Virus record (IMG/VR): IMGVR_UViG_3300018080_000256
Coordinates: 1 to 47,683 of that record
Length of the DNA stretch: 47,683 nucleotides
Source: a virus
Direction: 5' to 3' (one strand)
Both the position numbers and the translations under genes were made by a program. A model generated the notes under the pieces. The model did not search any database. It had not been told where the DNA came from and saw only the letters and a list, made by a program, of their open reading frames with translations. Shown in pieces: positions 10,809 through 24,124 of the stretch (the stretch's first letter is position 1; every line of letters begins with the position of its first letter).

Positions 10809-10836
10809 GGTGAGCCTCCTCTTTCGTTTTTTGGGT

Positions 10837-11226
10837 TTACGGGGCTGGAAGGTTGATTCTCAGGGCGAAATAGCCGTCCTTCCTCTTGATCCATTCCCCG
10901 GCATTGATGCTTTCGCCCATTGCGTTTTCGACCTCCACAAAGCGCCCGGATTCCGGTCCGGGCGGGGCGTCGAAAACGATATCCACGAACGGCGCAGGCG
11001 GCCCCCCGTGGGCTGGACAAGCAAGCGCAGGGACGTAGCCCTCATATTTCCCGTCGGTCCGGCGCCGTCGCCCATCTCGATCCCTGAACGTCTCGCTTGG
11101 GATCTGATTGCCGAAGGCCGGCTTGTCGCAGAATCCGGCGGGCATGCCGTTGCGCCACATCGGCACAGAGCATTTACCGACCCCGTTCTTGTCGAGTGTT
11201 CTGTGGCGCTTGCCAATAAATGCCAT
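10837..11226 (-). CDS. Unknown protein with Cys/His metal-site candidates (129 aa)
   Basis: The product begins MAFIGKRHRTLDKNGVGKCS and holds cysteines at KCSVP, GFCDKP and ACPAHGG, so a small zinc site is possible. The remainder is beta-rich and ends YFALRINLPAP. The start is fixed by AGGAGGCTCACTATG, nearly the same leader as two neighbouring genes. A longer reading upstream would overlap the tRNA-like region and is rejected. No family is recognised. Confidence 0.6.
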   Translation of the reverse strand: MAFIGKRHRTLDKNGVGKCSVPMWRNGMPAGFCDKPAFGNQIPSETFRDRDGRRRRTDGKYEGYVPALACPAHGGPPAPFVDIVFDAPPGPESGRFVEVENAMGESINAGEWIKRKDGYFALRINLPAP

Positions 11227-11355
11227 AGTGAGCCTCCTGAAAAGCCTGGTCTTCGAATCGTGCCCCTGCGTCGGATTCCGCCGGCGCTTTATCGGGCGGG
11301 CCGCCCGCGCCATTTGTCTCCTCAGAGTTACCCGAAGGTTATTGCCCCCAGGACA

Positions 11356-11470
11356 TATCACCGGGAATCGAACCCGGCTCCCTTCGCTCCAAGCCGTCGG
11401 CGAACCGTCGGGAATCGAACCCGCACTTCTAATGCCCCGCCCGCCCTTTCGACCGGACGGAGCCGTGATA
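11356..11470 (-). other. tRNA-like element with two T-arm motifs
   Basis: Two tRNA T-arm signatures lie 46 bp apart on the minus strand. One is CCGGG-TTCGATT-CCCGG (perfect 5-bp stem, about 11361-11377). The other is GCGGG-TTCGATT-CCCGA (about 11407-11423). The pair is framed by complementary TATCAC (11465-11470) and GTGATA (11356-11361). Two normal tRNAs could not fit in this space, and I cannot draw a standard cloverleaf. The element fills most of the gap 11227-11476. It may be tandem tRNA fragments, for instance relics of older att sites, or a structured RNA. Confidence 0.35.
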
Positions 11471-11476
11471 GAGGAG

Positions 11477-12622
11477 TCAATCCTTGAACAGCGTGCCCGG
11501 GGGCGGGCCCGATTTCCGCCGCGCCGTCTCCTGCTTGATCCAGGCGCCGAGTTTCCGCGCCGTCGGGAAGTCCTCGAGCTTGACGAGGCACTCTTCCGCC
11601 TGCTCTTTGGACAGGGACTTGAGCGAATTCGCCTTCGCCATGAGCTGGAGGAAGGCGGTCTCGTCGCGCTGGTTCACGCCCTTCGCGGTCATCACCTCGT
11701 GGAGCATCGAGAGCGCCCCGAGGCGGGCGTCTTCGGCGGCGTTGTCCTCCCGGGAGGGCTCGGGCCGCATCTGTACGGCCTCATCCGTCGTGCCCTCGGT
11801 TGCCGGCGGGATGATCGGGCGCTCGACGGTCTCGGCTTCGGGGTCGCTCTCGGGGGGCGGCGTTTCGCCGTTGAGCCGGTCCTTAAGGGCGGCGGCGCGG
11901 TCCTGGGGGTTGGAGCCGTTGGCTTCGTCTCCCGCAACTAACCGGGCCTGCGCGAGGCGCCCGACGTTTTCGGGGTCCGTGATTCCGTCGTCTATGGAAA
12001 TCGTCACGTTTTCCGCCGCCTTGGTCAGTCGGTCGCGCATCGTAGCGTCGACGCCCTCCCACATTTTGGGATCGAGGACAAACGCCACGGCCTGGGGGGC
12101 GGCGTCGTGCTGCGCGCGCTTCTCGGCCATCCTGAGAAGGATCCGCTTGTCCGTCACCTTCGATACGTTCTGAAGCTTCACGTTCTTCGGCGAGGCTGTT
12201 CCCCATCCTGCGACGGGCCCCGCGAATCCCTCCAACTGGCAATCCCAGAGCCATCCGACCTCCCCGTCGTCGCCGTTCCCGTAGACCTCCAGCTCTTTGG
12301 AGGTCATGGGTCGCGAACGCGTCGGCCCCTGATACCGCTTGTCGGTCGTGAGCCGCTTCATCCACGCCTGCTTCGTTATGTAGATCGTAGGCTGGTCTGC
12401 GGTCCCGAGGATGTTTACGTCGCCCGCGAGGGGGTCGAGGCCGTATCCTCTCGTGAGAAGCGCGACCGTCGCCCGCATGTCGGGCGCCATGCGCTCCAGA
12501 ATCGTTCCCGCCCGGAAGCTGTCTCGGGCGTAGTCAAGGGCCGTCTCGGAGCGAACCGCTGGCGGCTTGATAGGGGGTTTTGCCTGCGTCACAACTTCCG
12601 CTTTCGCCTCCTGGTCTTCCAT
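11477..12622 (-). CDS. RecT-like single-strand annealing protein (probable)
   Basis: The protein has 381 residues. The N-terminal half carries a RecT-like pattern: YGLDPLAGDVNILG, then PTIYITKQAWMKRL and, further on, LLRMAEKRAQHDA, corresponding to the conserved core of phage annealing proteins. The C-terminal half is acidic and Pro-rich before a last helical segment (SLKSLSKEQAEECLVKLEDF). It directly follows a RecE-like exonuclease gene, the classical exonuclease-annealase pair that drives phage recombination. The match is by pattern only, so another annealase family is possible. The leader is GAGGAGGCTCACCATG. Confidence 0.6.
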   Translation of the reverse strand: MEDQEAKAEVVTQAKPPIKPPAVRSETALDYARDSFRAGTILERMAPDMRATVALLTRGYGLDPLAGDVNILGTADQPTIYITKQAWMKRLTTDKRYQGPTRSRPMTSKELEVYGNGDDGEVGWLWDCQLEGFAGPVAGWGTASPKNVKLQNVSKVTDKRILLRMAEKRAQHDAAPQAVAFVLDPKMWEGVDATMRDRLTKAAENVTISIDDGITDPENVGRLAQARLVAGDEANGSNPQDRAAALKDRLNGETPPPESDPEAETVERPIIPPATEGTTDEAVQMRPEPSREDNAAEDARLGALSMLHEVMTAKGVNQRDETAFLQLMAKANSLKSLSKEQAEECLVKLEDFPTARKLGAWIKQETARRKSGPPPGTLFKD

Positions 12623-12634
12623 GGTGAGCCTCCT

Positions 12635-13501
12635 CTACTCGATGACTTCGTAGGGCCTATCCATCGCCCACTTCGGCGGGGATAGAGACATGATTCCCGG
12701 ATAAGCGGGCCACTCACCGTTGTCCATGCACCACTTCCAGCGTCGGAGCGCGAAGTGGTATTGCTCCCGCCCGTGGGCGAGGTCCGAAACGGAGATCTCG
12801 TAGACCGCGGAGAAATACTTCGGCGGGGTTTTCTCGACGGGGATCACAATAGGCATGTAGGGCTTTCTCCCCGTCAACGCCCGGAGCCCGTCCCAGTACA
12901 TCGCCGTCTGCATGAAATAGCCCCAGTCCTCACAGGATCTTTGAAACTCGCGAGGGTCCACGCTCTTGGTGGTTTTGAGGTCCGCGAAGAGGACGGAGGG
13001 CCGGTGGAAGTGGTCGAGCCTGCCCTGGAGAAAAAGCCCCGTCGCCTCGTCCCGCCAGAGCATCGAGACTTCGGTCTCACGTCCGGGGGCGAGGAGAATA
13101 TCGTGGGCCTCCTTGTGCGCCATGATCGAATCGCGCATTCCCCGGAGGTGCTCCATGTCCTCCTCGGAGATGACAAGCGCGCCGGGGTTGCAAGCCTCCC
13201 ATTCCGCCCACGCCTTGGTGTCTCGGCCGTAGGCTTTCCCCGTCTTCGGGTTGATCGGCCCACCGATGACGTACTCCGCCGCGAAGCGCTCGGGTTCAAG
13301 TACGAAGGTGTGAAACGCCGTCCCGAAAACCATGGCCTCGGTCGGAGCGCTCGGTGCCATGAGTCGCCGCTGGTAGTGCGCCGGGGTCTTGCGCACGAGG
13401 GGCCAGAGGGAGGACGCCCGGTGCCCGCCGAGGGCGGCGTAGTCGTCGTAGGAAAGGCCGGGGTAGATGCCCGAGACGAGGGGGCGCTCAGTCGCTTGCA
13501 T
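12635..13501 (-). CDS. RecE/exodeoxyribonuclease VIII-like PD-(D/E)xK nuclease
   Basis: The protein has 288 residues. It opens with GIYPGLSYDDYAAL, continues to GTAFHTFVLEP (His64) and carries the nuclease core QGRLDHF (Asp163) and ADLKTTKS (Asp174, Lys176), then a QTAMYWDGL helix. This is the layout of phage RecB/RecE-like exonucleases (DUF3799-type). It should degrade double-stranded ends 5' to 3' and hand single strands to the RecT-like protein encoded 13 bases downstream. It overlaps the upstream gene by 14 bases. Confidence 0.85.
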   Translation of the reverse strand: MQATERPLVSGIYPGLSYDDYAALGGHRASSLWPLVRKTPAHYQRRLMAPSAPTEAMVFGTAFHTFVLEPERFAAEYVIGGPINPKTGKAYGRDTKAWAEWEACNPGALVISEEDMEHLRGMRDSIMAHKEAHDILLAPGRETEVSMLWRDEATGLFLQGRLDHFHRPSVLFADLKTTKSVDPREFQRSCEDWGYFMQTAMYWDGLRALTGRKPYMPIVIPVEKTPPKYFSAVYEISVSDLAHGREQYHFALRRWKWCMDNGEWPAYPGIMSLSPPKWAMDRPYEVIE

Positions 13502-13760
13502 CGGTTGCCTCCTCCCGCTTGTGAAATCTCGGTCCGCCCTTCTTCCGCTTCGGCGTCTCGTAGTAGTAGAGGCCGCGCCGGAAAGCGGCGAGAATTTGCG
13601 GACCCTGTTGGTGGATTGCGATTGCCGCGGGTTTGGGCTGGCCGAAGCAGGGGTTGCCCATGCAGATGACGGCCCGCCTTGCCTGCGCCGCCTCGTCGAG
13701 TTCTTCGAGGGTGTTGATCCGCGCGCCCGCGAATAGGGGCTTGCGTTCCTGCTCGCTCAT
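13488..13760 (-). CDS. Unknown early protein (90 aa)
   Basis: The product begins MSEQERKPLFAGARINTLEE and ends KREEATDASD, with two cysteines in VICMGNPCFGQPKP. The C-terminal third is basic (YYYETPKRKKGGPRFHK). The stop lies inside the exonuclease start region (14-base overlap), and the start overlaps the stop of the upstream gene, so all three are coupled. A longer in-frame reading upstream is the shadow of the next gene. Function unknown. Confidence 0.62.
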   Translation of the reverse strand: MSEQERKPLFAGARINTLEELDEAAQARRAVICMGNPCFGQPKPAAIAIHQQGPQILAAFRRGLYYYETPKRKKGGPRFHKREEATDASD

Positions 13761-14383
13761 TTCGCCCTCCTCGGCTGTTGCGCGCTGATCTCCACGCCGT
13801 CCTCGGTCCATACGTCGCACGTGTCCTGTAGCGCGCCCGTCTCTGTTAGGTGGTACTCCCCGTGCTTGGTCCTCCCGAGGGAGGGCAGATCCTCCCAGCC
13901 CGGAACGCGCCGTCCGGGCTCGATCGCCGTAAGCGAGACTCGGATTCCGCACTCCCTCGTCAGCGGCCCCAGAATCTTGGCCGCCATCGCGATCCGCTCC
14001 GCGTCCGTCCACTCCCCGTCCAGAATCCGCTCGAGGCGCTCAGCCTGCTCCTGGCGGATCGGGTCGTGGTAGCGGACGCCCGCCGTGTGGTACTCGCAGC
14101 CGATGGCTTCGCGGGTGAGCAGCTCGAGCGCGGCGACCTGTTCCTCAAGATCGGTATTCCGTTTCTTCACGGCTTCGAGCGGGCCGGGGTCCGAAACCTC
14201 AACGACGCTGTTCCCCTTGATCGCGTCCTCGAGTTCGCCCTCGAGTTCGCGGATCCGTTCGGCCGCCTGCCTGAGCAGGTCCGCCGTGTCGTCGTAGGGG
14301 ATGCGCCCGCGCCCGACCGGGCCGGAGATGACCTGCGCGTGGCGGGTGAGAGCCGCCGGTTCGAATACGCCATTGGTGCCCAT
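13757..14383 (-). CDS. Unknown early protein with central coiled coil (208 aa)
   Basis: The N-terminus (FEPAALTRHAQVISGPVGRG) is followed by a heptad-rich helix at about 30-110 (LLRQAAERIRELEGELEDAI, then LEEQVAALELLTREAI). The C-terminal part is a small beta-rich region (GRTKHGEYHLTETGALQDTC). No enzymatic motif is evident. It lies between the regulator genes and the exonuclease-annealase pair. Confidence 0.62.
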   Translation of the reverse strand: MGTNGVFEPAALTRHAQVISGPVGRGRIPYDDTADLLRQAAERIRELEGELEDAIKGNSVVEVSDPGPLEAVKKRNTDLEEQVAALELLTREAIGCEYHTAGVRYHDPIRQEQAERLERILDGEWTDAERIAMAAKILGPLTRECGIRVSLTAIEPGRRVPGWEDLPSLGRTKHGEYHLTETGALQDTCDVWTEDGVEISAQQPRRAK

Positions 14384-14404
14384 CTGATCCCTCCTCTATC
14401 TCCT

Positions 14405-14422
14405 GGCCTCGGGGGCGAGGCC
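14405..14422. other. GC-rich hairpin between early genes
   Basis: GGCCTCG and CGAGGCC form a perfect 7-bp stem with a GGGG loop. It lies between two early genes transcribed leftward. There is no following U-tract, so termination by itself is unlikely. Confidence 0.3.
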
Positions 14423-14453
14423 CGATTGCCCCGCCCCGGCGAGGGCCGCGGTT

Positions 14454-14720
14454 TCAGCGATCCTTGATCCGGCAGGCGATCTTGTGGCCCCGCTTAGCCA
14501 TCCAGACCTCGTAGCCGTGAAGGCGAAACTGAACCCCGCTCGTCTCCCAGGCGGCCTCCCGCCGGCCTGGGTTGGGCTCGAGTTCCCGGAGCGCCTTCTT
14601 TGCGGCGCCCACGATGTTGCGCCATTCCATGGAGAGCAGCTCCTCGGCGAGGTTCCGCGTGTACTTGCGGCCGAGGGCCTTGACGACTCCTCGCGCCTTT
14701 TCCTCCGCTATGCTCGGCAT
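14454..14720 (-). CDS. Unknown early protein (88 aa)
   Basis: The product begins MPSIAEEKARGVVKALGRKY, is helical and basic for 60 residues, and ends with a beta-rich HGYEVWMAKRGHKIACRIK. The start overlaps the end of the HTH regulator gene by 13 bases. The layout would suit a small DNA- or RNA-binding protein, but no motif is decisive. Confidence 0.62.
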   Translation of the reverse strand: MPSIAEEKARGVVKALGRKYTRNLAEELLSMEWRNIVGAAKKALRELEPNPGRREAAWETSGVQFRLHGYEVWMAKRGHKIACRIKDR

Positions 14721-15265
14721 GGCGTCATCTCCTCTCCGGGCGCGCTCGCGGCCCTGAGCGCCTCGTCCATCGCGATCAGAGCCCCCGCCGCCTCGATCAG
14801 CACCGGATGGGCCTGGCGGTACTCCATGCCCGTCACGCGGCCGTCGGCGAGGACCTCGGCGGCCTTGGCGATCGAGTCGGCCACCGATCGAGCGAAGGTC
14901 GTGAAGTCGGCGCGCGCCTCCGCCTCCTTGTCGGCCAGCTTCGCCGGGAAGGGCGGAAGCCAGACCTCGAGCCTGGCCCCCGGCGCGCCGTTCGCGCTGT
15001 TGAGCACCTCGTATAGAAGGGCCTGGGCCTCCCCGAGCCCCACTTCGTCGCGCACCAGGCCCGCGAGACGCGCGAGCACCTGCGGCGGGAAGGTCTGCGA
15101 ACCGTTGAGGTAGCCGTACAGCGCGCTGGTGGATACCCTGAGGCGGGCGGCGATCTCCGTGTGCATCTCTTCGGAGTCGTACTCCGTCCCGAAGAAGCGC
15201 CTGAGCTGCTGATCGATCGCGATCCCGATCTCGCGGCGTTCCCGGGCGGACGTGGGGTTGTGCAT
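14708..15265 (-). CDS. HTH regulator, phage CII-like (probable)
   Basis: The protein has 185 residues. A helix-turn-helix lies at about 30-70 (HTEIAARLRVSTSALYGYLN), preceded by a basic helix. The C-terminal 100 residues are helical (AEARADFTTFARSVADSIAK), as in CII-type regulatory proteins of proteobacterial phages, which have a similar size. It is the second gene of the leftward operon and could control the lysis-lysogeny choice or early expression. Its start codon overlaps the stop of the first gene (TAATG). Confidence 0.7.
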   Translation of the reverse strand: MHNPTSARERREIGIAIDQQLRRFFGTEYDSEEMHTEIAARLRVSTSALYGYLNGSQTFPPQVLARLAGLVRDEVGLGEAQALLYEVLNSANGAPGARLEVWLPPFPAKLADKEAEARADFTTFARSVADSIAKAAEVLADGRVTGMEYRQAHPVLIEAAGALIAMDEALRAASAPGEEMTPCRA

Positions 15266-15450
15266 TAGAGCCTCACAGCATTTCTTCCGATGCCTTGCTC
15301 TTGCCTTTCGGGCTTCGAGAGGACAAAATTGAAAGCGGACGGGGCGCCCCCGTACCTGAAGGCGGCGACAACGAAGACACCCTCGTGGCGTGAGGGGCCC
15401 CGTCGCTTTTTTGTTGGGTCAATCGCGGTATTGGCGGTTGCGAATTGCAT
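15265..15450 (-). CDS. First gene of the leftward early operon (61 aa)
   Basis: The product begins MQFATANTAIDPTKKRRGPS and includes GVFVVAAFRYGGAPSAFNFV. The ATG has GGAG eight bases upstream and lies about 18 bases after the predicted transcription start. Its stop overlaps the next start (TAATG). It occupies the position of Cro in lambdoid phages but has no recognisable helix-turn-helix. It may be a small regulator or inhibitor. Confidence 0.55.
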   Translation of the reverse strand: MQFATANTAIDPTKKRRGPSRHEGVFVVAAFRYGGAPSAFNFVLSKPERQEQGIGRNAVRL

Positions 15451-15475
15451 CGGGTGTCTCCGTTGTCTGGTTTGC

Positions 15476-15503
15476 ATTCTATACAAAAATGTGAAGAAGT
15501 CAA
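15476..15503 (-). promoter_or_regulatory. Leftward early promoter
   Basis: On the minus strand TTGACT (-35, plus-strand 15498-15503) and TAGAAT (-10, 15476-15481) are separated by 16 bp, close to the sigma70 consensus. Transcription would start near 15468 and reach the 61-aa gene after a leader of about 18 nt. An imperfect palindrome TTTGTAT-AGA-ATGCAAA overlaps the -10 and could be an operator. Confidence 0.72.
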
Positions 15504-15531
15504 GCGATAAAACTACAAAAATGTCAAGAAG
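15482..15531. promoter_or_regulatory. Two direct repeats, candidate repressor operators
   Basis: TACAAAAATGTGAAGAAG (15482-15499) and TACAAAAATGTCAAGAAG (15514-15531) are 18-bp copies with one mismatch, 32 bp apart (about three helical turns). The first covers the spacer and -35 edge of the leftward promoter. The second covers the start codon of the repressor gene. That placement suits binding by the repressor to silence the early operon and to autoregulate. Confidence 0.6.
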
Positions 15532-16168
15532 AGCGGGGCGGCCACCTAAGGTCCATCTGCCCGGACGGTTACGCATGCTCATGGAAATGGCCGGGATTGA
15601 TGGTCTTCCAGCCCTGGCGGACCTGACCGGGATCTCCTATCGCGTCCTCAAGAACCTCCCGGAGGCCAAGGACGGGGGGAAGCTAACGACCTGGTCCAAG
15701 CTTGCCGACTTCTTCGACGGAAAGGTTCGAGCCATCCTGGGCGTTTCCAGAGTGACAATTGACTACTTGCTCGGTGGGGACCCCCCGGAGGGTGAGGTGC
15801 TCGCGCCGGAGATCCCAATCAAGGGCACCGCCGGGGCCTCTTTGACCTACACGGGCGAATCTATAGATCTCGGGTCGAAATCCCTGGAGTGCTGCTTCCT
15901 TGTCCAGGTTGTGGATTCGTCAATGGAGCCGGTCGTCCGCTCCGGCGAGATGGTTATCGCCACGGGATGCGAGGATCCGGTCTCGGGGGACGTGGTCGTT
16001 TTCGGTTCGGACTCGGAAGGGCACTGGCTGGTGAAACAATGGATCAAGACGACCAAAGGGCATCAGTTCAGAAGCTTGAACATGCGAGAACCCCTGGAGA
16101 CGATCGTGATGAAAAAGAAGCCCCGGATGTACCGGGTAATCGGGGTCATCATGGGGAAGAGAACATAG
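15521..16168 (+). CDS. S24/LexA-type phage repressor
   Basis: The protein has 215 residues. An N-terminal DNA-binding region at about 12-75 includes LADLTGISYRVLKNLPE, a helix-turn-helix-like segment. The C-terminal half is a LexA/CI-type S24 peptidase: VVDSSMEPVVRSGEMVIA holds the serine (near 134) and WLVKQW the lysine (near 171). An Ala-Gly pair in GTAGAS (about 104-105) is the likely self-cleavage site. RecA-stimulated cleavage would induce the prophage. The ATG has no good ribosome binding site, so translation may be leaderless or weak, or it may begin at the in-frame GTG at 15491. It heads the plus-strand lysogeny operon. Confidence 0.85.
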   Translation: MSRRAGRPPKVHLPGRLRMLMEMAGIDGLPALADLTGISYRVLKNLPEAKDGGKLTTWSKLADFFDGKVRAILGVSRVTIDYLLGGDPPEGEVLAPEIPIKGTAGASLTYTGESIDLGSKSLECCFLVQVVDSSMEPVVRSGEMVIATGCEDPVSGDVVVFGSDSEGHWLVKQWIKTTKGHQFRSLNMREPLETIVMKKKPRMYRVIGVIMGKRT

Positions 16169-16178
16169 GGGGGGCACA

Positions 16179-16607
16179 ATGAAGCCTGTCGCTATCGTCA
16201 TGCCATTATTGCTTTTGCTCAGTACGGGATGCGCTACGATCATAAACGGCACAACAGAAGACGTGATTGTTCTCTCGAAACCGGCAGGGCAGAAAGTGCT
16301 TATTGACGCTGTAGAATACGAGACGCCCGTGACGGTATATTTAAGCAGGAATTCAAGGCATGTAATCAAATTTCCAGACGGACAGGTGATTAAAACAGGA
16401 TGGTCTTCATGGGGGAACCACAATGTTTTATGGAACATATTGTGGAATCTGGTGGGAATTGCACCTGCTCTTGTAGCGATATTGGTTGACGTAGCTACGG
16501 GAGCCGCCAAGGACATCGAACCTGATATTCTATTATTCGATCATGGGAAGATAATAGACATGGACAACGGTGAGATCGTTGCCCAAAAGCAGAATAAAAC
16601 CGAGTGA
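16179..16607 (+). CDS. Lipoprotein in lysogeny operon
   Basis: The protein has 142 residues. The signal MKPVAIVMPLLLLLSTGC is a textbook lipobox ending in Cys18. A beta-rich segment follows (VIVLSKPAGQKVLIDAVEYE), resembling PEGA-like surface domains. Around residue 80-110 a hydrophobic stretch (WNILWNLVGIAPALVAIL) could be a second membrane contact. It lies 10 bases after the repressor with a strong ribosome binding site (AGGGGGGG). Prophage lipoproteins expressed with the repressor often act in superinfection exclusion or alter the host surface; this is inference. The gene is more AT-rich than the phage core. Confidence 0.75.
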   Translation: MKPVAIVMPLLLLLSTGCATIINGTTEDVIVLSKPAGQKVLIDAVEYETPVTVYLSRNSRHVIKFPDGQVIKTGWSSWGNHNVLWNILWNLVGIAPALVAILVDVATGAAKDIEPDILLFDHGKIIDMDNGEIVAQKQNKTE

Positions 16608-16996
16608 TGCACATCCACAAATCAAATAACACCCGCAGGAAGACGGTGAAATTGACGGCGGTGGCCGAGAGGCCGCTCCCTGTCAAGCACGCGGGCCGCC
16701 GGCGCCGGGGGGAAGCCCCCCTCGGCGTCGGCATATTGATGACGCCCGGCTGGTTTGCCAAGGCGCGCAAGTGGCCGGAGTACGCCATCGGCCTGCGGCA
16801 GCGCGTGTACCTGGACGGCGGTGAGATCTCCGCGAAGGACCTGGACCCGGACGACGTGAAGATTCTGGCCTGGCTGTTCGAGAAGCGGACCGGGCTGGCG
16901 TGCAGGATAGAAGACAAAACGAACAAGCATGGGAATCCGGGGGCTCGCGTTGCACGGAGGCAGACATGTCAAAAAAAGGAGGAGGGGCAGGAATAA
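16607..16996 (+). CDS. Unknown protein in lysogeny operon (129 aa)
   Basis: The product begins MHIHKSNNTRRKTVKLTAVA, is basic at both ends, and holds a middle region APLGVGILMTPGWFAKARKW. Its ATG overlaps the stop of the lipoprotein gene; a GTG one codon upstream is also possible. The reading frame is GC-rich compared with the genes on either side. Its end overlaps the next gene by 31 bases. No family is recognised, and the overlap leaves some doubt about the exact C-terminus in vivo. Confidence 0.5.
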   Translation: MHIHKSNNTRRKTVKLTAVAERPLPVKHAGRRRRGEAPLGVGILMTPGWFAKARKWPEYAIGLRQRVYLDGGEISAKDLDPDDVKILAWLFEKRTGLACRIEDKTNKHGNPGARVARRQTCQKKEEGQE

Positions 16997-17259
16997 TCGG
17001 GCTGCTAATTTTGGGGGGGATCATCTATGGATTTGTGAAGTACCCGGTGCTCGGAATAATCGGCGTAGTCGTCCTGGTGGGCCTTTTCATTCTCCACGCC
17101 CTGACTTCGGGGCCGGTAGACTGTGAAATCTGCGGGGTCGAATTGAAAAAGAAATCGTATGAATGGAATATCGACGGGAAAAAGAAGACCGTATGCCCCA
17201 ACTGTAATAGGAAGATGGAAAAGAAGGCGAGCGACGACGCGTTCCGGGACATGGAATAA
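16966..17259 (+). CDS. Membrane protein with zinc ribbon
   Basis: The protein has 97 residues. After a Gly/Lys-rich start there are two hydrophobic helices at about 9-47 (GIIGLLILGGIIYGF and GIIGVVVLVGLFILHAL). A C-terminal zinc ribbon follows with CEIC and CPNC pairs, and then a charged tail. The start is fixed by GGAGGCAGACATG; a longer upstream frame has no such site. The topology suggests a membrane-anchored zinc domain on the cytoplasmic side. It ends 15 bases before the TIR gene and is a good candidate partner or sensor for it. Confidence 0.68.
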   Translation: MSKKGGGAGIIGLLILGGIIYGFVKYPVLGIIGVVVLVGLFILHALTSGPVDCEICGVELKKKSYEWNIDGKKKTVCPNCNRKMEKKASDDAFRDME

Positions 17260-17274
17260 TTGAAAGGACCACAG

Positions 17275-18132
17275 ATGGAGATATTTATCAGCTGGTCCGG
17301 AGAGCGAAGCAAGGCGGTTGCTACGACCCTCAAGGATTGGATCCACAAGGTTATTCAGAACGTCAAGCCGTGGATGTCTGACCGGGATCTCCCGCCCGGG
17401 ACGGCATGGTTTTCGGAAATACTCGAAAGGCTTAGCGTTTCAAAAATGGGAATAGTTTGCTTCACGCCCGAAAACATCAACAAGCCCTGGCTGCTTTTTG
17501 AAGCTGGGGCGACATTAAAATCGGTTGGTAGGTTGCGTGTATATCCATATCTATTTGACTTGAAATCCCTCCCTGCAGAACACCCTTTATTCAGCATTCA
17601 ATCAGCGAGCACAGACAAAGAAGATACAAGAAAATTGATACAAGCAATAAACGCCATGCAGGAAGACAGAGGGCTTTCAAAAGAGGATATGGACGAATCA
17701 TTCGAAACCAGATGGGGTGAACTGGAAAGCAAATTCAAGAAAATCCAACCCCCCAAGGGGCATGTGAAAGAAATGAAAACTGCTGATGAAAAACTTGATG
17801 AAATTACGGCAATAGTGAGGGGCATTTCGGTAGAACAAACGAGAAATTCAAGTGATATAAATGATAACGTCGAAGAGGTTTTGAACAACTTTCTTCAGGA
17901 GCGTGCGGCCTTGCCTCCATCTGGAGGAACTGTACCATTTAATAAGTTAAAAAGTCTGAGGAAATACCTGGATAAGATCCAGGAAGAGAAGCGAATGAGA
18001 AGAGAGGTCGCAGCATACGACGTTTATAGAACAGACCAATTAATTAAAGATTTCTTTGATAAATTGATGAAAAGCTCTAAAGGAAGCGAAGAAAATAAAG
18101 GCAAGGGACATAGTCTCATGGGCCTTGATTAG
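17275..18132 (+). CDS. TIR-domain protein, candidate antiphage effector
   Basis: The protein has 285 residues. Residues 1-130 form a TIR-like domain: IFISWSGERSK at the start, KPWMSDRDLPPGTAW, MGIVCFTPENI and PWLLFEAGAT, where Glu76 is the expected NADase catalytic residue. The rest is helical and charged, with no known sensor domain. In bacteria TIR proteins cleave NAD+ or make cyclic-ADP-ribose signals during antiphage defence. The gene is clearly AT-rich relative to the phage core, a sign of later acquisition. It lies between repressor and integrase on the same strand, so it should be expressed in the lysogen. The ATG at 17275 is preferred (AGGA upstream) over the frame start 15 bases earlier. 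Confidence 0.82.
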   Translation: MEIFISWSGERSKAVATTLKDWIHKVIQNVKPWMSDRDLPPGTAWFSEILERLSVSKMGIVCFTPENINKPWLLFEAGATLKSVGRLRVYPYLFDLKSLPAEHPLFSIQSASTDKEDTRKLIQAINAMQEDRGLSKEDMDESFETRWGELESKFKKIQPPKGHVKEMKTADEKLDEITAIVRGISVEQTRNSSDINDNVEEVLNNFLQERAALPPSGGTVPFNKLKSLRKYLDKIQEEKRMRREVAAYDVYRTDQLIKDFFDKLMKSSKGSEENKGKGHSLMGLD

Positions 18133-19272
18133 ATGCCTTTCTTCTGGCGCAAAGTCCGGACAGCCAACGGCGTGACCAAGGTGCCTTACGTCCGCATCTA
18201 CTTCGCCGGCACCGACCGGGCGCGCTCCATCAAGGAGATCTGGCCGCACAAGCGGAAGAAACCGCCGGCGAGGATCGTCGCCCTCGCGGAGGCCGAGATC
18301 TACAGGGAACTCGAGCAGCCGCAGAAGCCCCGTCGCGGGACGAGCGAGGCCCTGCGCACGGCCGAGAAGTACCTGGAATGGATGCGGGCGAGCAGGAGCG
18401 ACGGCCATTTCGAGCACGTTGACTTCGCCGTCCGGAACGCCTGCGATGCGATCGGCACGGAGACGATAGGGGAGTGGACGCTTCGGGAACTCGAGGACTA
18501 CCTCCACCAGGGGAGGACCGCGGCCGGCTGGGCGGAGGATCGGAGACCCTGGTCCGCCCGCACATACAACCTCCACCTCGGCATGCTATCCCACTTTCTG
18601 AGCTGGGCCGTGAAGCGCGGGATCATCGAGGCGAACCCGGCGAGGGAGGTGGAGAAGATCCGGGGCGAGAAGAAGCAGCCCCAGTACGTCGCCGAGACCG
18701 ACATCCCCGCGCTACTCAAGGCCTGCGCGGCTCAGGACGCCGAGCTCGAGAAACGCCCCTTCTCCCTCGAGGAGGTGGTCACCGTCGCCCTGGGCACCGG
18801 CGCCCGGATCTCCGAGCTGGTCGGGCTCCGATGGGAGGACGTGGATCTCAGGAAGCGCCGGGTCCGCTTCACCGGCAAGGGGAAGAAGGACAGGACCATC
18901 CCGATCTCGGCGATGGCAGGCAGGGTCCTGAACAAGACCAGACGCCGGAAGAACGGCCCGGTCTTCCCCGGCCTGAACCGGGACGCCCGTCCCCTGAAGA
19001 GGGCCATCACGGCCGCCAAGATCCCCGTCGAGGGCGGTTGGCACCTGCTCAGACACACCTTCGGGGCCCATGCGGCCTCCCGCGGGGTCCCCCTGAGGGT
19101 CCTAAGTTTTTTTCTCGGGCACTCGTTTTTTCGGACCACGGAGCTCTATTCCCACCTGATTCCGTCCGAAATGGACGGCGCGATGGACCTGGTGGACAAG
19201 GCCCTCTCCGTGACACCTGACCGTGACAGTCGCAAGAAAAAGGGCCGCAAGCGCAAGCGCAAGCGACCCTAA
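18133..19272 (+). CDS. int: Tyrosine integrase
   Basis: The protein has 379 residues. An N-terminal arm-binding region (1-60) and core-binding region (about 65-180) precede the catalytic domain. The active-site set is complete: Arg in GTGARISELVGLRW (near 225), Lys in GKGKKDRTIP, HLLRHTF (near 303-309), the LGHSFFRTT histidine (near 330) and Tyr in LYSHL (near 337). The C-terminal tail is very basic (RKKKGRKRKRKRP). The ATG follows the TIR stop codon without a gap. It integrates or excises the phage at a tRNA 3' end, as the adjacent att core shows. Confidence 0.93.
   Translation: MPFFWRKVRTANGVTKVPYVRIYFAGTDRARSIKEIWPHKRKKPPARIVALAEAEIYRELEQPQKPRRGTSEALRTAEKYLEWMRASRSDGHFEHVDFAVRNACDAIGTETIGEWTLRELEDYLHQGRTAAGWAEDRRPWSARTYNLHLGMLSHFLSWAVKRGIIEANPAREVEKIRGEKKQPQYVAETDIPALLKACAAQDAELEKRPFSLEEVVTVALGTGARISELVGLRWEDVDLRKRRVRFTGKGKKDRTIPISAMAGRVLNKTRRRKNGPVFPGLNRDARPLKRAITAAKIPVEGGWHLLRHTFGAHAASRGVPLRVLSFFLGHSFFRTTELYSHLIPSEMDGAMDLVDKALSVTPDRDSRKKKGRKRKRKRP
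19208..19229 (+). repeat. attP arm-type repeat pair (left arm)
   Basis: CCGTGACA occurs at 19208-19215 and 19221-19228, a 13-bp period, inside the last codons of the integrase gene. The same octamer pair with the same period appears on the other side of the tRNA-derived core. This is the layout expected for integrase arm-type binding sites. Confidence 0.6.
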
Positions 19273-19299
19273 GTCCTGACGGTTCCGTGGCTTCCGTCC

Positions 19300-19348
19300 T
19301 GGTGACCCCGACGGGATTCGAACCCGTGTCGCGAGATCGAAAATCTCG
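19300..19348 (-). other. attP core: 3' segment of a tRNA gene
   Basis: The minus strand carries a tRNA 3' half: anticodon arm CGAGA-TTTTCGA-TCTCG (19332-19348), a 4-base variable loop, T-arm ACGGG-TTCGAAT-CCCGT (19311-19327), acceptor strand CGGGGTC (19304-19310), then ACCA. The 5' half is absent; no D-arm or complementary GACCCCG follows. The anticodon position would read UUC (Glu), tentatively. A truncated tRNA 3' end 28 bases after an integrase is the typical phage attachment core that restores the host tRNA on integration. Confidence 0.82.
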
Positions 19349-19494
19349 TTTGGCCCGTGGGCGGAATACGCCCGAAAGTGGCGAGTCACGCCAGAGAAGC
19401 CCCCCAAGAGCATCGAGCGACCGATTCAAGGCAAATACAATCCAGACATCCCGTGCAGGAAAAACAGTGTCAGTCCCGAATAATGGGCCGGTGA

Positions 19495-19515
19495 CCGTGA
19501 CAGCGGACCGTGACA
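19495..19515 (+). repeat. attP arm-type repeat pair (right arm)
   Basis: CCGTGACA occurs at 19495-19502 and 19508-19515, again with a 13-bp period and in the same orientation as the left pair. The extended unit is GACCGTGACAG. With the left pair it brackets the tRNA-derived core at distances of about 72 and 147 bp. Confidence 0.6.
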
Positions 19516-19625
19516 GTTTTCGCACCAGACGCGCGAGGATCGCCCAGGACGAATCCGGGGTGTCAGGGGTCGGGCCGCCGGCGAGAATGCGCAGGACGGG
19601 GCGGAGAGGCGCGGAGAAATAGAAA

Positions 19626-19665
19626 GGAGCGGTTGGAGGCCTCTTGGCTCTCCTCCGACCGCTCC
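19626..19665 (-). terminator. Long hairpin, possible terminator on the minus strand
   Basis: GGAGCGGT (19626-19633) pairs with ACCGCTCC (19658-19665), and an inner GGAGG/CCTCC extends the stem to about 14 bp. On the minus strand the stem is followed by TTTCTATTTCT, a loose U-rich tract. It could stop late transcription running leftward toward attP, although that would pass antisense through the 20046-20968 pair. On the plus strand there is no U-tract. Confidence 0.42.
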
Positions 19666-20045
19666 TCATGGCCGTATCAGCCTCAAGCTGTACGGGTAAG
19701 CCGAGGGCAGACTACTTCGCAGAATTTGATAAATCAAGGTAAACAAATAGATCAGGATAATAATTATTTTGCAAGAATGACGTAATCCAATTATCTGCAA
19801 GGCTTTACCGCGTAACAGGAAAATTACTAAGATTTCAAAAATATCATTGCCTTAATAAGATTTTGGGGCAAGATATTAGGTGTATTGGGATGAAGACCTC
19901 AAGCGATCGGGTAAGCCAACCCTGCCTAAGGTCAGCTTCCCATTTTATCTTCAGGGCTGAGACGAGAAGGGGCCGTCCCGGCTCGTAATGAAGACAGCAG
20001 ATTGTTGTTTTCGTGTCTGCCTCGAGAACGGAGTGCGTAATCGAG

Positions 20046-20546
20046 ATGAAATCCCATGGACCAGAGAAATGTGGTAGAGTAATTGTTAAAGCTGGATGCC
20101 ATAGTTTGCCGATACTACTACCAGACGGTACGCTCGGGACTGGCTTTCTATCCTTCGATCATCGCAATTACATCTGGAAGGGCCCGGAGTGGAAGTACCG
20201 GGAGCTTCAGTACATAGTCCCAGGAGTTCTTGAAAAACCCCGCCATCTCTGGCGCGGCATTCGGCATGCCAGGGCATGGGAAGAGGTGTTGCTGAAGGAT
20301 GGCTGGACGAAGGAAATGGCGGAGTCGGCATTTGACCCGGACTGGTGGGCATATACAGGAGTGCCAAAATTTGACTTTGATGGGTGGAGAGGCGCTAAGA
20401 AGGTCCCGTATCCCCCTGGTTATGTATTCCTGGTTTGTGTAAACGAAGACAAGATGATATATATTTGGCTCTCAGTGAAGGCTGATCCAACGGACCCAAC
20501 GAAACCGGAGGGTCACGAAAAGAGGTTCTTAAGGGAATACTTCTGA
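20046..20546 (+). CDS. Possible toxin-like protein of a two-gene unit
   Basis: The protein has 166 residues from ATG at 20046; an in-frame GTG at 20013 is an alternative. Features include ELQYIVPGVLEKPRHLWRGI and, near the end, PPGYVFLVCVNEDKMIYIWL. This order (a bound pro-segment, then an Arg/Trp-rich helix and a strand pair) recalls phage-associated Barnase/EndoU/ColicinE5/RelE-like nuclease domains, but the resemblance is weak and no catalytic set is certain. The next gene overlaps by one base (TGATG). The unit lies between attP and the lysis genes, on the strand opposite to the late operon, as cargo genes often do. Confidence 0.55.
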   Translation: MKSHGPEKCGRVIVKAGCHSLPILLPDGTLGTGFLSFDHRNYIWKGPEWKYRELQYIVPGVLEKPRHLWRGIRHARAWEEVLLKDGWTKEMAESAFDPDWWAYTGVPKFDFDGWRGAKKVPYPPGYVFLVCVNEDKMIYIWLSVKADPTDPTKPEGHEKRFLREYF

Positions 20547-20968
20547 TGAACGATTTCGCAAGGGATCTTGAGAGGGCAGTTCAAGGTCTCGACCGCCCCA
20601 GAGAGTTCCAGCCGTGCGTGCATTACAATCGCGAGGGGGATTGCCTCGAATTCCTCGTTTCTTCAAATCGTTACTGGGCCGATCGGATCGACCCGATAAT
20701 CACGGTGTATATGGATTTCGAGAGCGACAAGATTGTCGGCGTGATGATCAAGGGCGTCCGGAATTTGGTCAAGGTCATCAGTGAAAAGATCCCCGGATTT
20801 GAACTTGCCGTGGATGATGGCAAGGTTCAGATGGAGTCTCTCCTTCTCGCGGCGTTTTGGGTGAAGCGATTCCCCGAGGAGAAGATCCCATCACTCAGGA
20901 AAATCTACAGGCGTCTTATTCATATCGCAGAGGAAGCAAAAGCGGAAACTGATTTCTGCCTCGCATAG
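20546..20968 (+). CDS. Possible antitoxin/immunity partner (DUF2283-like)
   Basis: The protein has 140 residues. CVHYNREGDCLEFLVSSNRY, then a DPIITVYMDFESDKIVGV strand pair and an IKG turn, resembles the DUF2283 pattern. The C-terminal half is helical (VKRFPEEKIPSLRKIYRRLI). Its start overlaps the stop of the upstream gene. DUF2283-like proteins are often small partners in two-gene units, which suits an antitoxin or immunity role, but this is inference. Confidence 0.55.
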   Translation: MNDFARDLERAVQGLDRPREFQPCVHYNREGDCLEFLVSSNRYWADRIDPIITVYMDFESDKIVGVMIKGVRNLVKVISEKIPGFELAVDDGKVQMESLLLAAFWVKRFPEEKIPSLRKIYRRLIHIAEEAKAETDFCLA

Positions 20969-20974
20969 GCATCT

Positions 20975-21571
20975 CTATCCCACCCACGGTTCGTACTTGT
21001 ACCCCCGTGCCGTCGCCCTCGAGGCCTCGCTGATCTCGCATGGCGCAGCCTGGTCCTGGGCGAGCCGGTCAAGTCGCCCGGTCGAGCCCATCCACGTCCC
21101 GCCCTCCTTCGCGTCGCGGGAGTCCCGGCCCGTCGTCGCCGCGATCCAGTGGAGGGCCTCGTGCGGGAGTGTAGGGAGGGGGTTCTCCGCCCTGGGCGTG
21201 CCGTCCTCGAGTCGTGCCCAGGAGACGACGACGAGGGTGTTGTACCGGCACCCCTTCACCCATCGGCGGAAGGGGGCCATGAAGGGATAGGCGGGGTGAA
21301 TCATGATCTCCAGCCGGGTCCAGGGCGCCCGCGGGAAGGCGGTGCGCAGGGGGGCGAGGTAGCTCTCGGCCGTCGCCAGCACCAGGTTGCGATCCTCCTC
21401 GACGAGCCAGTCCGGAAAGATCAGTCGCCCGGCGCCGGCGAGATCTCCCGCGGGCCTATCGGTGGAGTATTCGCTCTCGAACGCCGCCTGCTCCCGGTAG
21501 GCATCGAGCGTGGTGCATGACGCCAGGGTGAACAAACAGAGGCCCAGCGTGAACAAAGCACGGTGAATCAT
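20975..21571 (-). CDS. Lipoprotein with HExxH metalloprotease-like motif
   Basis: The protein has 198 residues. The signal MIHRALFTLGLCLFTLASC ends in a lipobox Cys19. The mature part contains LPHEALHWIAATTGR, an HExxH motif (HEALH), and an acidic residue in the following DSRDAKEGG segment might be the third zinc ligand. A partial fit to zinc peptidases is therefore visible, but no full family match. The start is chosen for GGAGGTG seven bases upstream. It lies at the end of the late operon in the lysis region, where an endopeptidase or spanin-like function would be expected. The gene ends 7 bases from the opposing gene pair. Confidence 0.68.
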   Translation of the reverse strand: MIHRALFTLGLCLFTLASCTTLDAYREQAAFESEYSTDRPAGDLAGAGRLIFPDWLVEEDRNLVLATAESYLAPLRTAFPRAPWTRLEIMIHPAYPFMAPFRRWVKGCRYNTLVVVSWARLEDGTPRAENPLPTLPHEALHWIAATTGRDSRDAKEGGTWMGSTGRLDRLAQDQAAPCEISEASRATARGYKYEPWVG

Positions 21572-21583
21572 GAACACCTCCGT

Positions 21584-21610
21584 AAAAAACCCCGGCCGCC
21601 AAGGCCGGGG
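21584..21610 (-). terminator. Rho-independent terminator before the HExxH lipoprotein
   Basis: CCCCGGCC and GGCCGGGG (21590-21597, 21603-21610) form a perfect 8-bp GC stem with a 5-base loop. On the minus strand it is followed by six U residues (21584-21589). The ribosome binding site of the next gene starts only two bases later, so that gene is reached only by readthrough or antitermination. Confidence 0.8.
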
Positions 21611-21728
21611 CTGCGCCCGCGAGGGGCGCTCTCGGGGCACGCATGGCCGCGAGCATCCCGTGGATTGCATGCCGGGGGCCCCGCGCCCCCGGCGGATCCT
21701 GAGGACCCATAGTCACTCAGGAGGCGAA

Positions 21729-22070
21729 TCACTTGGGCAGCCGGTCGAGGATCTCCTTCAGGTCCCGGCGCATCTCCGCTTGCCCCTGCAGGATCATGCG
21801 CTGCGTGGCCCGGGTCTCGGAGGCCTCCTCTCGGGTTGCCTCGATCTTGGACTTCGCGTCTTTCAGGTCCTCGGCGGAGGCCTTGCCGTTGCCCCGGAGG
21901 ATCATGTAGCCGAACGCCCCGCTCATGACGAGCGACAGGATCGTGATGATGATGCCGATCACCCATCGCGAGACCTTCGCGTCGACCTTGTCGTCCACCC
22001 GGTTGATTGCCGAGTAGACGCTGCTCCGGCATTCCCGGCGGATGTCTTCGCAGTCCTTTGCCGATGGCAT
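21729..22070 (-). CDS. XhlA-like lysis-region membrane protein
   Basis: The protein has 113 residues. A short N-terminal helix (CEDIRRECRSSVYSAINRVD) leads to one membrane segment at about 34-55 (VIGIIITILSLVMSGAFGYM), then a coiled coil to the end (DAKSKIEATREEASETRATQ). This arrangement resembles XhlA-type proteins that assist holins. The start ATG has AAGGGGG upstream; an in-frame TTG two codons earlier is less likely. It directly follows the holin-like gene. Confidence 0.62.
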   Translation of the reverse strand: MPSAKDCEDIRRECRSSVYSAINRVDDKVDAKVSRWVIGIIITILSLVMSGAFGYMILRGNGKASAEDLKDAKSKIEATREEASETRATQRMILQGQAEMRRDLKEILDRLPK

Positions 22071-22072
22071 AG

Positions 22073-22333
22073 TCAACCCCCTTCCGGGGCGCTCCCGGCC
22101 TCGTCCGCCCGTACATGGTTGTGGATCACCGGGAGGTCGGGCTTTTTGGTCCTGGCCCGGGCCATCGAGTAGAGGCCAGAGGCCAGGGCCGGTCCGAGCA
22201 CGAGCGCGACCTTGACCAGGGCGTCTTCCTCAGTGACTATGCCGAGCCCGATTAGAAGCGCGATGACGATCACAAGGAAAAACCCCGCCCACTCCGTCGT
22301 TCGCCAGCCCGGTTTCGGTTGCGGAATTTCCAT
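22073..22333 (-). CDS. Holin-like two-helix membrane protein
   Basis: The protein has 86 residues. It begins MEIPQPKPGWRTTEWAGFFL and has two hydrophobic helices at about 14-32 and 38-58 (VIVIALLIGLGIV and VALVLGPALASGLYSMA) with a basic, disordered tail. The KPGWRTTEW entry followed by two helices is frequent in phage holin-like proteins. The start is fixed by GGAGGAAGCCATG. It should sit in the inner membrane and could time lysis. No signal or enzyme motif is present. Confidence 0.65.
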   Translation of the reverse strand: MEIPQPKPGWRTTEWAGFFLVIVIALLIGLGIVTEEDALVKVALVLGPALASGLYSMARARTKKPDLPVIHNHVRADEAGSAPEGG

Positions 22334-22359
22334 GGCTTCCTCCGTGCTGGAGGCGGGGC

Positions 22360-22863
22360 CTATTCCCCGCCTGCTGCTATGGCCTTCTTGGCCGACTCCC
22401 TCAGCATGTAAAGGGGCGGCCCGGCGCCGATGCCGGCCACCCAGGCCCACCATTTGATCGGCGCCACCTCCTCGCGCCGTCGGCGATCGGATTCTTCGGA
22501 GAAGGCCCGGATGTATGCTGAGAGTTCTGTAGCGCTTATCAGTCCGTCGTGGTTCTGGTCGTACTGCTCAATTCGGACTCCTGTTTGGTCCGCGAGCCAG
22601 TCGAGGGCGGAATCGCATTGCTTTACGGTCCCTGTCTCGACGTAGTCCACGGCTTCCTCGAGGGCCCCGTCGGCGACGGCCTTCGCTCCCTCGAGGACGG
22701 CGGGCGATATGCCGGGCATCCGGTCCTTGAGTACGACCTCCGCGGCCCCCCATGCTCCATCGAACGTTGCGTGCGTGGCTTTCTCGAGCGCCGTGCAGCC
22801 GCCCAATACGAGGGCGATCGCGACCAGCGCCAGGAAGCCCCAGAATGGATTTGGTCCTCTCAC
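22360..22863 (-). CDS. Lipoprotein with EF-hand
   Basis: The protein has 167 residues and starts at GTG, with AAGGAGGTACACC upstream. Residues about 5-20 (FWGFLALVAIALVLGGC) end in a lipobox cysteine. A canonical EF-hand calcium loop, DQNHDGLISATEL, lies near 115-128. A C-terminal hydrophobic segment (WWAWVAGIGAGPPLYML) precedes a basic end. A calcium-binding lipoprotein in the lysis cassette is unusual. It might be a spanin-like outer-membrane partner or a regulator of lysis, both inferences. Confidence 0.68.
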   Translation of the reverse strand: MRGPNPFWGFLALVAIALVLGGCTALEKATHATFDGAWGAAEVVLKDRMPGISPAVLEGAKAVADGALEEAVDYVETGTVKQCDSALDWLADQTGVRIEQYDQNHDGLISATELSAYIRAFSEESDRRRREEVAPIKWWAWVAGIGAGPPLYMLRESAKKAIAAGGE

Positions 22864-23081
22864 GGTGTACCTCCTTTCAATTGGTTTTGTGCATCCAACT
22901 GCTCGCGCAGTTCTTCGGTCGTCAGTTTTCTCAATTTGCCCCGGCACCATCGGCACCGGTTGACGAGGCGCCGGTTCACCCAGCACGCCTCGATCACCTC
23001 TTGCGGCTTCTGGCATTGCGGACGCAAGGGCGCCACGCACTTCGCCCAGACCCTGCCGTGCTCTATGTCATCCTTGATCAT
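22860..23081 (-). CDS. Small cysteine-rich protein (73 aa)
   Basis: The product begins MIKDDIEHGRVWAKCVAPLR and holds six cysteines or so (AKCVAP, PQCQKP, EACWVN, NRCRWCRGK). A zinc-knuckle or iron-sulfur site is possible. The stop overlaps the GTG of the EF-hand lipoprotein (GTGA), and the start lies at the end of the fibre-like gene, where the two overlap by 4 bases. Function unknown. Confidence 0.6.
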   Translation of the reverse strand: MIKDDIEHGRVWAKCVAPLRPQCQKPQEVIEACWVNRRLVNRCRWCRGKLRKLTTEELREQLDAQNQLKGGTP

Positions 23082-24118: not shown

Positions 24119-24124
24119 CCGTCT

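What the first reader, a model, noticed from the sequence alone, without database searches (positions are those of the whole stretch)
16179..18132. Lysogeny operon carries a TIR effector with a membrane zinc-ribbon partner and a lipoprotein
Between repressor and integrase, on the same strand with tiny gaps or overlaps, lie a lipoprotein, an unknown GC-rich gene, a two-helix membrane protein with a zinc ribbon, and a TIR-domain protein (IFISWSGERSK, FEAGA). TIR domains in bacteria are NADases or signal makers in antiphage defence. The TIR gene is AT-rich and looks acquired. A TIR protein with a membrane-anchored zinc-ribbon neighbour, cotranscribed with the prophage repressor, would be a compact defence unit active in the lysogen. 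Whether the four genes work together is inference.
Basis: partly seen in the sequence, partly recalled or inferred. Interest (0 to 1): 0.78.

Follow-up and report, generated by a model that had tools for sequence, protein, structure and literature searches.

The report
TIR defence cargo in prophage operon
A temperate phage carries, beside its lysogeny repressor and integrase, a TIR gene of a known anti-phage family together with an unrelated small membrane zinc-finger gene; relatives elsewhere suggest two independent cargo genes rather than a new two-part defence machine.

Summary
The TIR protein (17275-18132) is a real TIR (PF13676; predicted fold like SPARTA, SARM1 and SpbK), with a W72/E76 pair that aligns to AbTir's WxxxE (weak). 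It belongs to a widespread family (phrog_13899, PADLOC TIR-TM). One member, from P2-like phage AC1 (42% identical over residues 1-158), belongs to a published three-gene TIR plus membrane-protein locus that protects E. coli C from lambda, LF82_P8 and P2. That family has another home: in 27 of 42 viral loci it sits directly behind an Arc/Mnt-type regulator. The TIR is mostly solitary (94 of 149 loci). Best reading: independent lysogeny cargo, the TIR acting alone as an NAD-consuming superinfection defence (inferred). No close relative of this phage's repressor-integrase region was found, so linkage within its own lineage is untested.

The parts
15521..16168 (+). prophage repressor with S24-type C-terminal domain (ORF is open back to 15290)
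   Evidence: PF00717 2.2e-7, phrog_4 repressor 1.1e-8 on the ORF from 15290
16179..16607 (+). lipoprotein (hydrophobic start plus Cys, read by eye; weak PEGA-like N-terminal half); lysogeny cargo
   Evidence: phrog_6823 5e-5, PEGA 0.076; phmmer over the fetched loci finds only the window itself; no match in phages
16604..16996 (+). small unknown gene (GTG start assumed) with phage-typical codon composition
   Evidence: GC3 0.82 in this frame against 0.62 and 0.46 in the others; no family above cut-off
16966..17259 (+). small membrane protein, two helices plus a C4 zinc finger; member of a phage family that mostly follows Arc/Mnt-type regulators
   Evidence: 35-50% identity to 20 aligned family members; neighbourhoods; model
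17275..18132 (+). TIR protein: TIR domain about 1-130 (W72, E76), short helices to about 155, two long helices 170-211 and 222-273
   Evidence: PF13676, phrog_13899 8.6e-58, PADLOC TIR-TM 1.7e-55 over residues 1-208; model pLDDT 86.5; fold matches
18133..19272 (+). tyrosine integrase directly after the TIR stop codon
   Evidence: PF00589 5.6e-22, phrog_1 1.4e-50
19303..19362 (-). partial tRNA (3' half) next to the integrase: likely attachment site (attP)
   Evidence: Rfam RF00005 30 bits; ARAGORN finds no full tRNA

Best explanation
The repressor-integrase interval is a lysogeny transcript loaded with independently acquired cargo genes. The TIR gene is a self-contained anti-phage effector of the AC1 / phrog_13899 TIR family. 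In the lysogen it would be made at low level from the repressor transcript and held inactive; a superinfecting phage is sensed, probably through the long helical C-terminal half that differs from relative to relative, the TIR domains assemble, and they consume NAD+ (or make an NAD-derived signal) so that the cell aborts the infection. The membrane zinc-finger gene and the lipoprotein are separate lysogeny cargo; the zinc protein more likely has a function of its own tied to phage immunity regions, for example superinfection exclusion. Shown: gene order, TIR family and predicted fold, conserved W/E pair, no linkage to the zinc family elsewhere, mostly solitary TIR genes. Inferred: NAD consumption, trigger, assembly, cotranscription, repression state.
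For: TIR family by three libraries. Glu76 present in 145 of 145 aligned relatives (25 of 170 rows dropped because their starts did not fit my motif); since retrieval partly used a motif containing that Glu, the fair figure is 43 of 43 relatives that lack that motif but have the N-terminal one. The family profile aligns W72/E76 with WxxxE of the AbTir NAD+ hydrolase (E 0.019, weak) and with plant ADP-ribosyl cyclase TIRs (E 0.11). The model is matched by SPARTA TIR-APAZ (Z 14.7, 3.8 A, 146 residues), SARM1 (13.9, 2.2 A, 120) and SpbK (13.8, 2.8 A, 147). The AC1 relative's three-gene locus protects E. coli C (PMC9122126, passages seen). Solitary in 94 of 149 loci with room on both sides. Uneven composition: GC3 0.50, 0.82, 0.64, 0.46 for the four genes in order. 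Relatives sit as cargo in unrelated slots: between Q and holin genes in mEp390 and in a phage region of a 1.3-Mb E. coli record, behind a rep gene on a 4.7-kb Serratia plasmid, 0.7 kb behind an integrase in a Desulfuromonadales contig, and, in viral contig L123, between a convergent integrase (PF00589 9e-9, 15 nt away) and a ThsB-like TIR plus caspase pair on the other strand, i.e. among defence genes.
Against: In the best characterised relative, AC1, two membrane-protein genes lie beside the TIR and all three were cloned together; the passages I saw do not show that TIR alone suffices. In the window the zinc gene is only 15 nt upstream. The window TIR's C-terminal quarter does not match the AC1 profile, so trigger and mode may differ. 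The window TIR sits on a long branch. No biochemical evidence; TIR domains can also be scaffolds or signal makers. The gene models behind the 'solitary' count are a simple ORF heuristic.
Confidence: 0.6

Rival explanations
1. TIR and the membrane zinc protein (perhaps with the lipoprotein) form one defence unit: the membrane protein anchors, senses or is the pore effector, and the TIR makes or spends the NAD-derived signal, as its authors suggest for the AC1 TIR with its membrane partners.
For: 15-nt spacing and same strand; AC1 precedent of TIR beside 2TM and 1TM proteins; TIR with 2TM SLATT pairs reported in Firmicutes phages (PMC9503650, passages).
Against: No co-occurrence: 0 of 170 other TIR loci and 0 of 48 other zinc-family loci hold both. 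Neither the zinc gene nor the lipoprotein hits the AC1 partner profiles 2TM-TIR and 1TM-TIR. Genes with a hydrophobic segment are not enriched in the operon-like upstream slot of the TIR family: 7 of 32, against 445 of 2307 genes overall. AC1-type partners themselves occur at only 3 of the fetched TIR loci (L003, L141, L149). The zinc family has another frequent neighbour.
Confidence: 0.15
2. The zinc gene and the TIR are two layers of one superinfection programme without contact: membrane-level exclusion by the zinc protein, abortive infection by the TIR.
For: The zinc family sits directly behind an Arc/Mnt-type gene in 27 of 42 viral loci and within 1 kb in 11 more (PF03869 on two of these genes), with a second, divergent hit of the same profile close by at most of these loci, as in P22's mnt-arc region; P22 has a superinfection exclusion gene, sieA (PMC10883804, search listing only; that sieA is a membrane protein is recalled).
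Against: No functional data for the zinc family; 3 plasmid loci and 4 viral loci lack the Mnt-type neighbour within 1 kb. In the window the regulator is an S24 repressor two genes away.
Confidence: 0.15
3. The TIR is inactive or non-defensive cargo, drifting after acquisition.
For: Long branch of the window TIR in the family tree (1.53 against a median end branch of 0.53) and departures from strong family consensus at, for example, residues 80, 100, 107 and 108.
Against: Open frame; positions fixed in all 145 aligned relatives are kept (F4, S6, W7, S12, G42, T64, N67, E76, G78); good fold confidence.
Confidence: 0.1

Closest known systems
P2-like phage AC1 TIR locus (TIR + two membrane proteins; PADLOC TIR-TM, 2TM-TIR, 1TM-TIR), Rousset et al. 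2022, PMC9122126 (passages seen)
   Same: Same TIR family (42% identity over residues 1-158; PDLC03016 1.7e-55); carried by a temperate phage; small membrane-protein genes upstream of the TIR.
   Different: C-terminal quarter not shared; membrane neighbours unrelated (no hit to 2TM-TIR or 1TM-TIR); different genomic slot.
SpbK of ICEBs1 (B. subtilis), PMC12847820 (abstract and passages seen)
   Same: One TIR protein on a mobile element; TIR fold similar (Z 13.8); reported NADase acting by abortive infection.
   Different: SpbK's TIR domain is C-terminal (residues 111-266 in that paper); the window protein's is N-terminal, followed by long helices. SpbK is not among the sequence matches at E up to 10 in the PDB searches.
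BstA-type prophage abortive infection with self-immunity, PMC8585504 (search listing only)
   Same: Single defence gene encoded by a prophage.
   Different: Unrelated protein by name; no sequence comparison was made and no self-immunity element was looked for here.
TIR with 2TM SLATT pairs of Firmicutes phages, PMC9503650 (passages seen)
   Same: Phage TIR gene beside a two-helix membrane gene.
   Different: The window's membrane protein carries a C4 zinc finger; its Pfam list holds no SLATT hit.

Membership tests
AC1-type TIR family (phrog_13899 / PADLOC TIR-TM) | TIR domain plus conserved linker helices (profile positions 1 to about 205) | tested here: met
   8.6e-58 and 1.7e-55 over residues 1-204 and 1-208
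AC1-type TIR family (phrog_13899 / PADLOC TIR-TM) | C-terminal part of the AC1 profile (positions 209-293) | tested here: not met
   the window match ends at profile position 208 of 293, AC1's own at 286; four other members tested end at 244-280. A variable part, so I keep the TIR in the family and not in the system
AC1 three-gene system (2TM + 1TM + TIR) | partner proteins 2TM-TIR and 1TM-TIR adjacent | tested here: not met
   neither the zinc gene nor the lipoprotein nor the unknown gene hits any PADLOC model at E up to 1
TIR NAD+ hydrolase / cyclase | catalytic glutamate in a WxxxE-type motif | tested here: met
   W72/E76 align to AbTir and plant TIR motifs (weak E-values); Glu in 43 of 43 relatives not selected for it
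TIR NAD+ hydrolase / cyclase | NAD+ cleavage | not testable with these tools
   needs purified protein or NAD+ measurement
Thoeris | a Thoeris effector (such as ThsA) next to the TIR | tested here: not met
   no PADLOC hit for the three upstream neighbours; the downstream neighbour is an integrase; the TIR's own ThsB match is only 0.0015
Membrane zinc-finger family behind Arc/Mnt-type regulators | hydrophobic segment, then the residues fixed in the family (P50 C53 K61 W67 G71 K72 K73 C77 P78 C80 S89 F93) | tested here: met
   alignment with 20 members
Membrane zinc-finger family behind Arc/Mnt-type regulators | Arc/Mnt-type gene directly upstream (frequent, not universal) | tested here: not met
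   no hit of the Mnt-type profile in window 9001-25000; the regulator here is an S24 repressor two genes upstream

The most novel reading that the evidence does not exclude
The membrane zinc-finger family is an undescribed prophage immunity-region factor (membrane sensor or exclusion protein, normally expressed with an Arc/Mnt-type regulator), and in this phage it has been joined to a TIR effector in the repressor operon, so that envelope sensing triggers NAD+ depletion.
Probability: 0.1. Interest if true: 0.65.

Novelty: new member of a known kind. Interest (0 to 1): 0.32.

Why it matters
It adds a divergent phage-borne member to a TIR family with one relative in a published protective locus, and shows by counting that its tempting membrane partner is not a conserved partner. 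The by-product may matter more: a small membrane zinc-finger family that rides directly behind Arc/Mnt-type regulators in 27 of 42 viral loci found, for which the libraries scanned give no function, is a simple and testable candidate for a superinfection factor.

Tried and rejected
Close relatives of the window TIR, zinc protein and repressor in viral contigs with single-protein queries: none; of the integrase: 4 distant ones, 28-31% identical over parts. So the slot could not be compared among sister phages. Lipoprotein in phages: no match.

I considered a split version of a fused TIR-TM protein (a PADLOC name) and rejected it: none of 172 TIR proteins (the window counted twice, as L001 and the window slice; a few are fragments too short to tell) has a hydrophobic segment after residue 150 at my Kyte-Doolittle threshold. 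The name belongs to the TIR of the AC1 system, whose membrane parts are separate genes.

A motif search for tyrosine integrases near other TIR loci was too strict to use (1 of 161 loci). phmmer with the window integrase hits ORFs in 9 other TIR loci; in L123 the integrase is adjacent to the TIR (15 nt, convergent), in L014 0.7 kb upstream, in the other 7 more than 2 kb away. So a TIR beside an integrase is not unique to the window; integrases unlike the window's were not counted. P22's own small gene behind mnt (orf59a) was read and is not a zinc protein.

A quick FastTree of 136 rows places the window TIR on a long branch without supported neighbours; phage and cellular members are intermixed (32 label changes, at least 7 forced by starred branches), though more clustered than shuffled labels (mean 44.6; 0 of 500 as low). 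I draw only that the family has moved between phages and cells more than once. Fold matches to viral models were poor. The helical half of the TIR was not searched alone; most fold rows cover residues 1-138 only.

The zinc family in four genomes that hold TIR relatives: 0 of 4, with no positive control. Papers (held library only): five terms including 'between the repressor' found none; of mEp390, P2_AC1 and TIR only one paper holds two, without mEp390; '2TM_1TM_TIR' none; mnt-neighbour terms gave nothing on a zinc gene in the listings.

Full report
What is there. The window is a 47,683-base virus record. Between 15521 and 19272 on the + strand lie an S24-type repressor, a lipoprotein, a small unknown gene, a membrane zinc protein, a TIR protein and a tyrosine integrase, with gaps of 10, -4, -31, 15 and 0 nt. 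A partial tRNA (3' half, minus strand) follows the integrase at 19303-19362 (Rfam tRNA, 30 bits; ARAGORN finds no complete tRNA). Phage genes lie on both sides: an exonuclease VIII relative at 12635-13501 and a capsid relative at 44607-45938. So this is most simply attP of an unintegrated or excised phage genome. No + strand terminator-like site lies inside the cargo stretch, and one weak promoter-like match is at chance level. A single transcript is likely but not shown.

The TIR protein. It matches PF13676 (8.3e-10), phrog_13899 (8.6e-58) and PADLOC TIR-TM (1.7e-55, residues 1-208). AlphaFold2 with 76 relatives gives mean pLDDT 86.5 and pTM 0.63: a TIR fold in about the first 130 residues, then helices to 155 and two long helices, 170-211 and 222-273. 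The best VIA-align matches are SPARTA TIR-APAZ (Z 14.7, rmsd 3.8, 146 residues), SARM1 TIR (13.9, 2.2, 120) and the SpbK filament (13.8, 2.8, 147). A profile of the family aligns W72 and E76 with WxxxE of the AbTir NAD+ hydrolase (E 0.019, weak) and of plant TIR cyclases (E 0.11); at E up to 0.01 there was no PDB sequence match. Glu76 is kept in 145 of 145 aligned relatives (25 of 170 rows were dropped because their N-terminus did not fit my start motif). As one retrieval motif contained this Glu, the fair control is the 43 relatives that carry only the N-terminal motif: 43 of 43 keep it.

Known relatives. The phages collection holds four matching records (two phages, each deposited twice): mEp390 and P2_AC1; plasmids hold 11 records. 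In mEp390, and in a phage region of a 1.3-Mb E. coli record listed as a plasmid, the TIR is a lone, oppositely oriented gene between Q and the holin genes; on a 4.7-kb Serratia plasmid it follows a replication gene. In viral contig L123 it lies between a convergent integrase (PF00589 9e-9) and, on the other strand, a ThsB-like TIR gene (PF08937 9.1e-9) followed by a caspase gene (PF00656 3.2e-19): a Thoeris-like pair, so a defence context. The P2_AC1 relative (42% identity over residues 1-158) lies behind two genes whose products PADLOC names 2TM-TIR and 1TM-TIR; the three cloned genes protect E. coli C against lambda and LF82_P8, and the system also against P2; the authors suggest a nucleotide messenger acting on the membrane proteins (PMC9122126, passages seen).

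Test of the proposed pair. In all, 172 loci carry a TIR hit, two of which (L001 and the window slice) are the window itself, and 50 loci carry a member of the zinc family, again including these two. The only overlap is the window: 0 of 170 other TIR loci have a zinc-family gene, and 0 of 48 other zinc-family loci have a TIR (recounted in 115). Many loci are cut by contig ends. Disregarding family, 0 of 922 small + strand ORFs within 1 kb of 161 non-redundant TIR genes combine a hydrophobic segment with CxxC..CxxC, against 4 of 2717 beyond 2 kb: such ORFs are rare everywhere, so this shows absence and not depletion. Lipoprotein and unknown gene have no homologue at any fetched TIR locus. AC1-type membrane partners occur at three loci, L003, L141 and L149. 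An operon-like upstream gene (same strand, gap up to 60 nt) is present at 32 of 154 loci with room; 7 of the 32 have a hydrophobic segment, against 445 of 2307 genes in these loci: no clear enrichment. 94 of 149 loci with room on both sides have no operon-like neighbour. These use a simple ORF-based gene model.

The home of the zinc protein. Homologues in phage Edno5 and Klebsiella phage KP12 are one-helix versions directly behind an Arc/Mnt-type gene (Pfam Arc PF03869 43 bits for Edno5's and 72 bits for the KP12-type gene in L180, cut-off 20.4). Of 42 viral loci found with the family alignment, 27 have such a gene on the same strand at -4 to 22 nt, 11 at 507-940 nt, 1 at 1653 nt and 3 none. 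Many are near-copies; counting distinct C-terminal sequences apart from the window's, 21 of 30 are immediate, 2 within 1 kb and 7 neither, three of these from plasmids. The Mnt-type profile was built from the genes it was then used to find, so the independent support is Pfam's Arc model on two of them. Library hits of the family itself are weak: phrog_3794 2.4e-5 for one of three members scanned, Pfam zinc models all below cut-off. The window's version is longer, with two helices, and follows an S24 repressor instead. The frequent partner of this family is phage immunity regulation, not TIR.

Composition. GC3 of lipoprotein, unknown gene, zinc gene, TIR and integrase is 0.50, 0.82, 0.64, 0.46 and 0.88. 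A unit acquired in one piece would be expected to be more even; this looks like serial, separate gains, with the unknown gene part of the phage's own stock. This is an inference from composition only.

Mechanism. I commit to: a single-gene abortive-infection effector made in the lysogen, triggered by a superinfecting phage through its helical C-terminal half, consuming NAD+ or making an NAD-derived signal. SpbK is a worked precedent for one TIR protein on a mobile element with assembly-dependent NADase activity (PMC12847820, abstract and passages). Shown here: family, predicted fold, motif, lack of conserved partners. Not shown: activity, trigger, assembly, expression.

Verdict.

Noticed in passing
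L178-L219 (for example L180 4989-5195), L005 3935-4150, L006 3944-4150: A small family of membrane proteins with a C4 zinc finger follows Arc/Mnt-type regulator genes in phages (27 of 42 viral loci directly adjacent); no function assigned in the libraries scanned. Candidate superinfection factor.
   Followed up: partly
L123 1-3330: A TIR relative between a phage integrase and a ThsB-like TIR plus caspase pair: a small defence cluster at a phage end; looks like a TIR-caspase Thoeris type (type recalled, not tested).
   Followed up: partly
L014 4288-5319 and 6001-6810: The relative with the highest identity to the window TIR in the tree set (44%) lies in a Desulfuromonadales contig 0.7 kb behind an integrase with an integron-like look (PF13495 plus PF00589); possibly a cassette. 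No attC search was made.
   Followed up: no
window 19303-19362: 3' half of a tRNA beside the integrase with phage genes on both sides: likely attP, so the record probably represents a circular or excised phage genome rather than an integrated prophage (no exact terminal repeats of 11-200 bases).
   Followed up: partly
window 20013-20968: Two + strand ORFs of low GC (0.51) just beyond the attachment site, without a family hit that counts: a second patch of foreign cargo at what would be the other prophage end.
   Followed up: no
L174 2944-4308 (E. marmotae plasmid): A zinc-family gene lies between an unknown protein gene and a reverse transcriptase gene.
   Followed up: no
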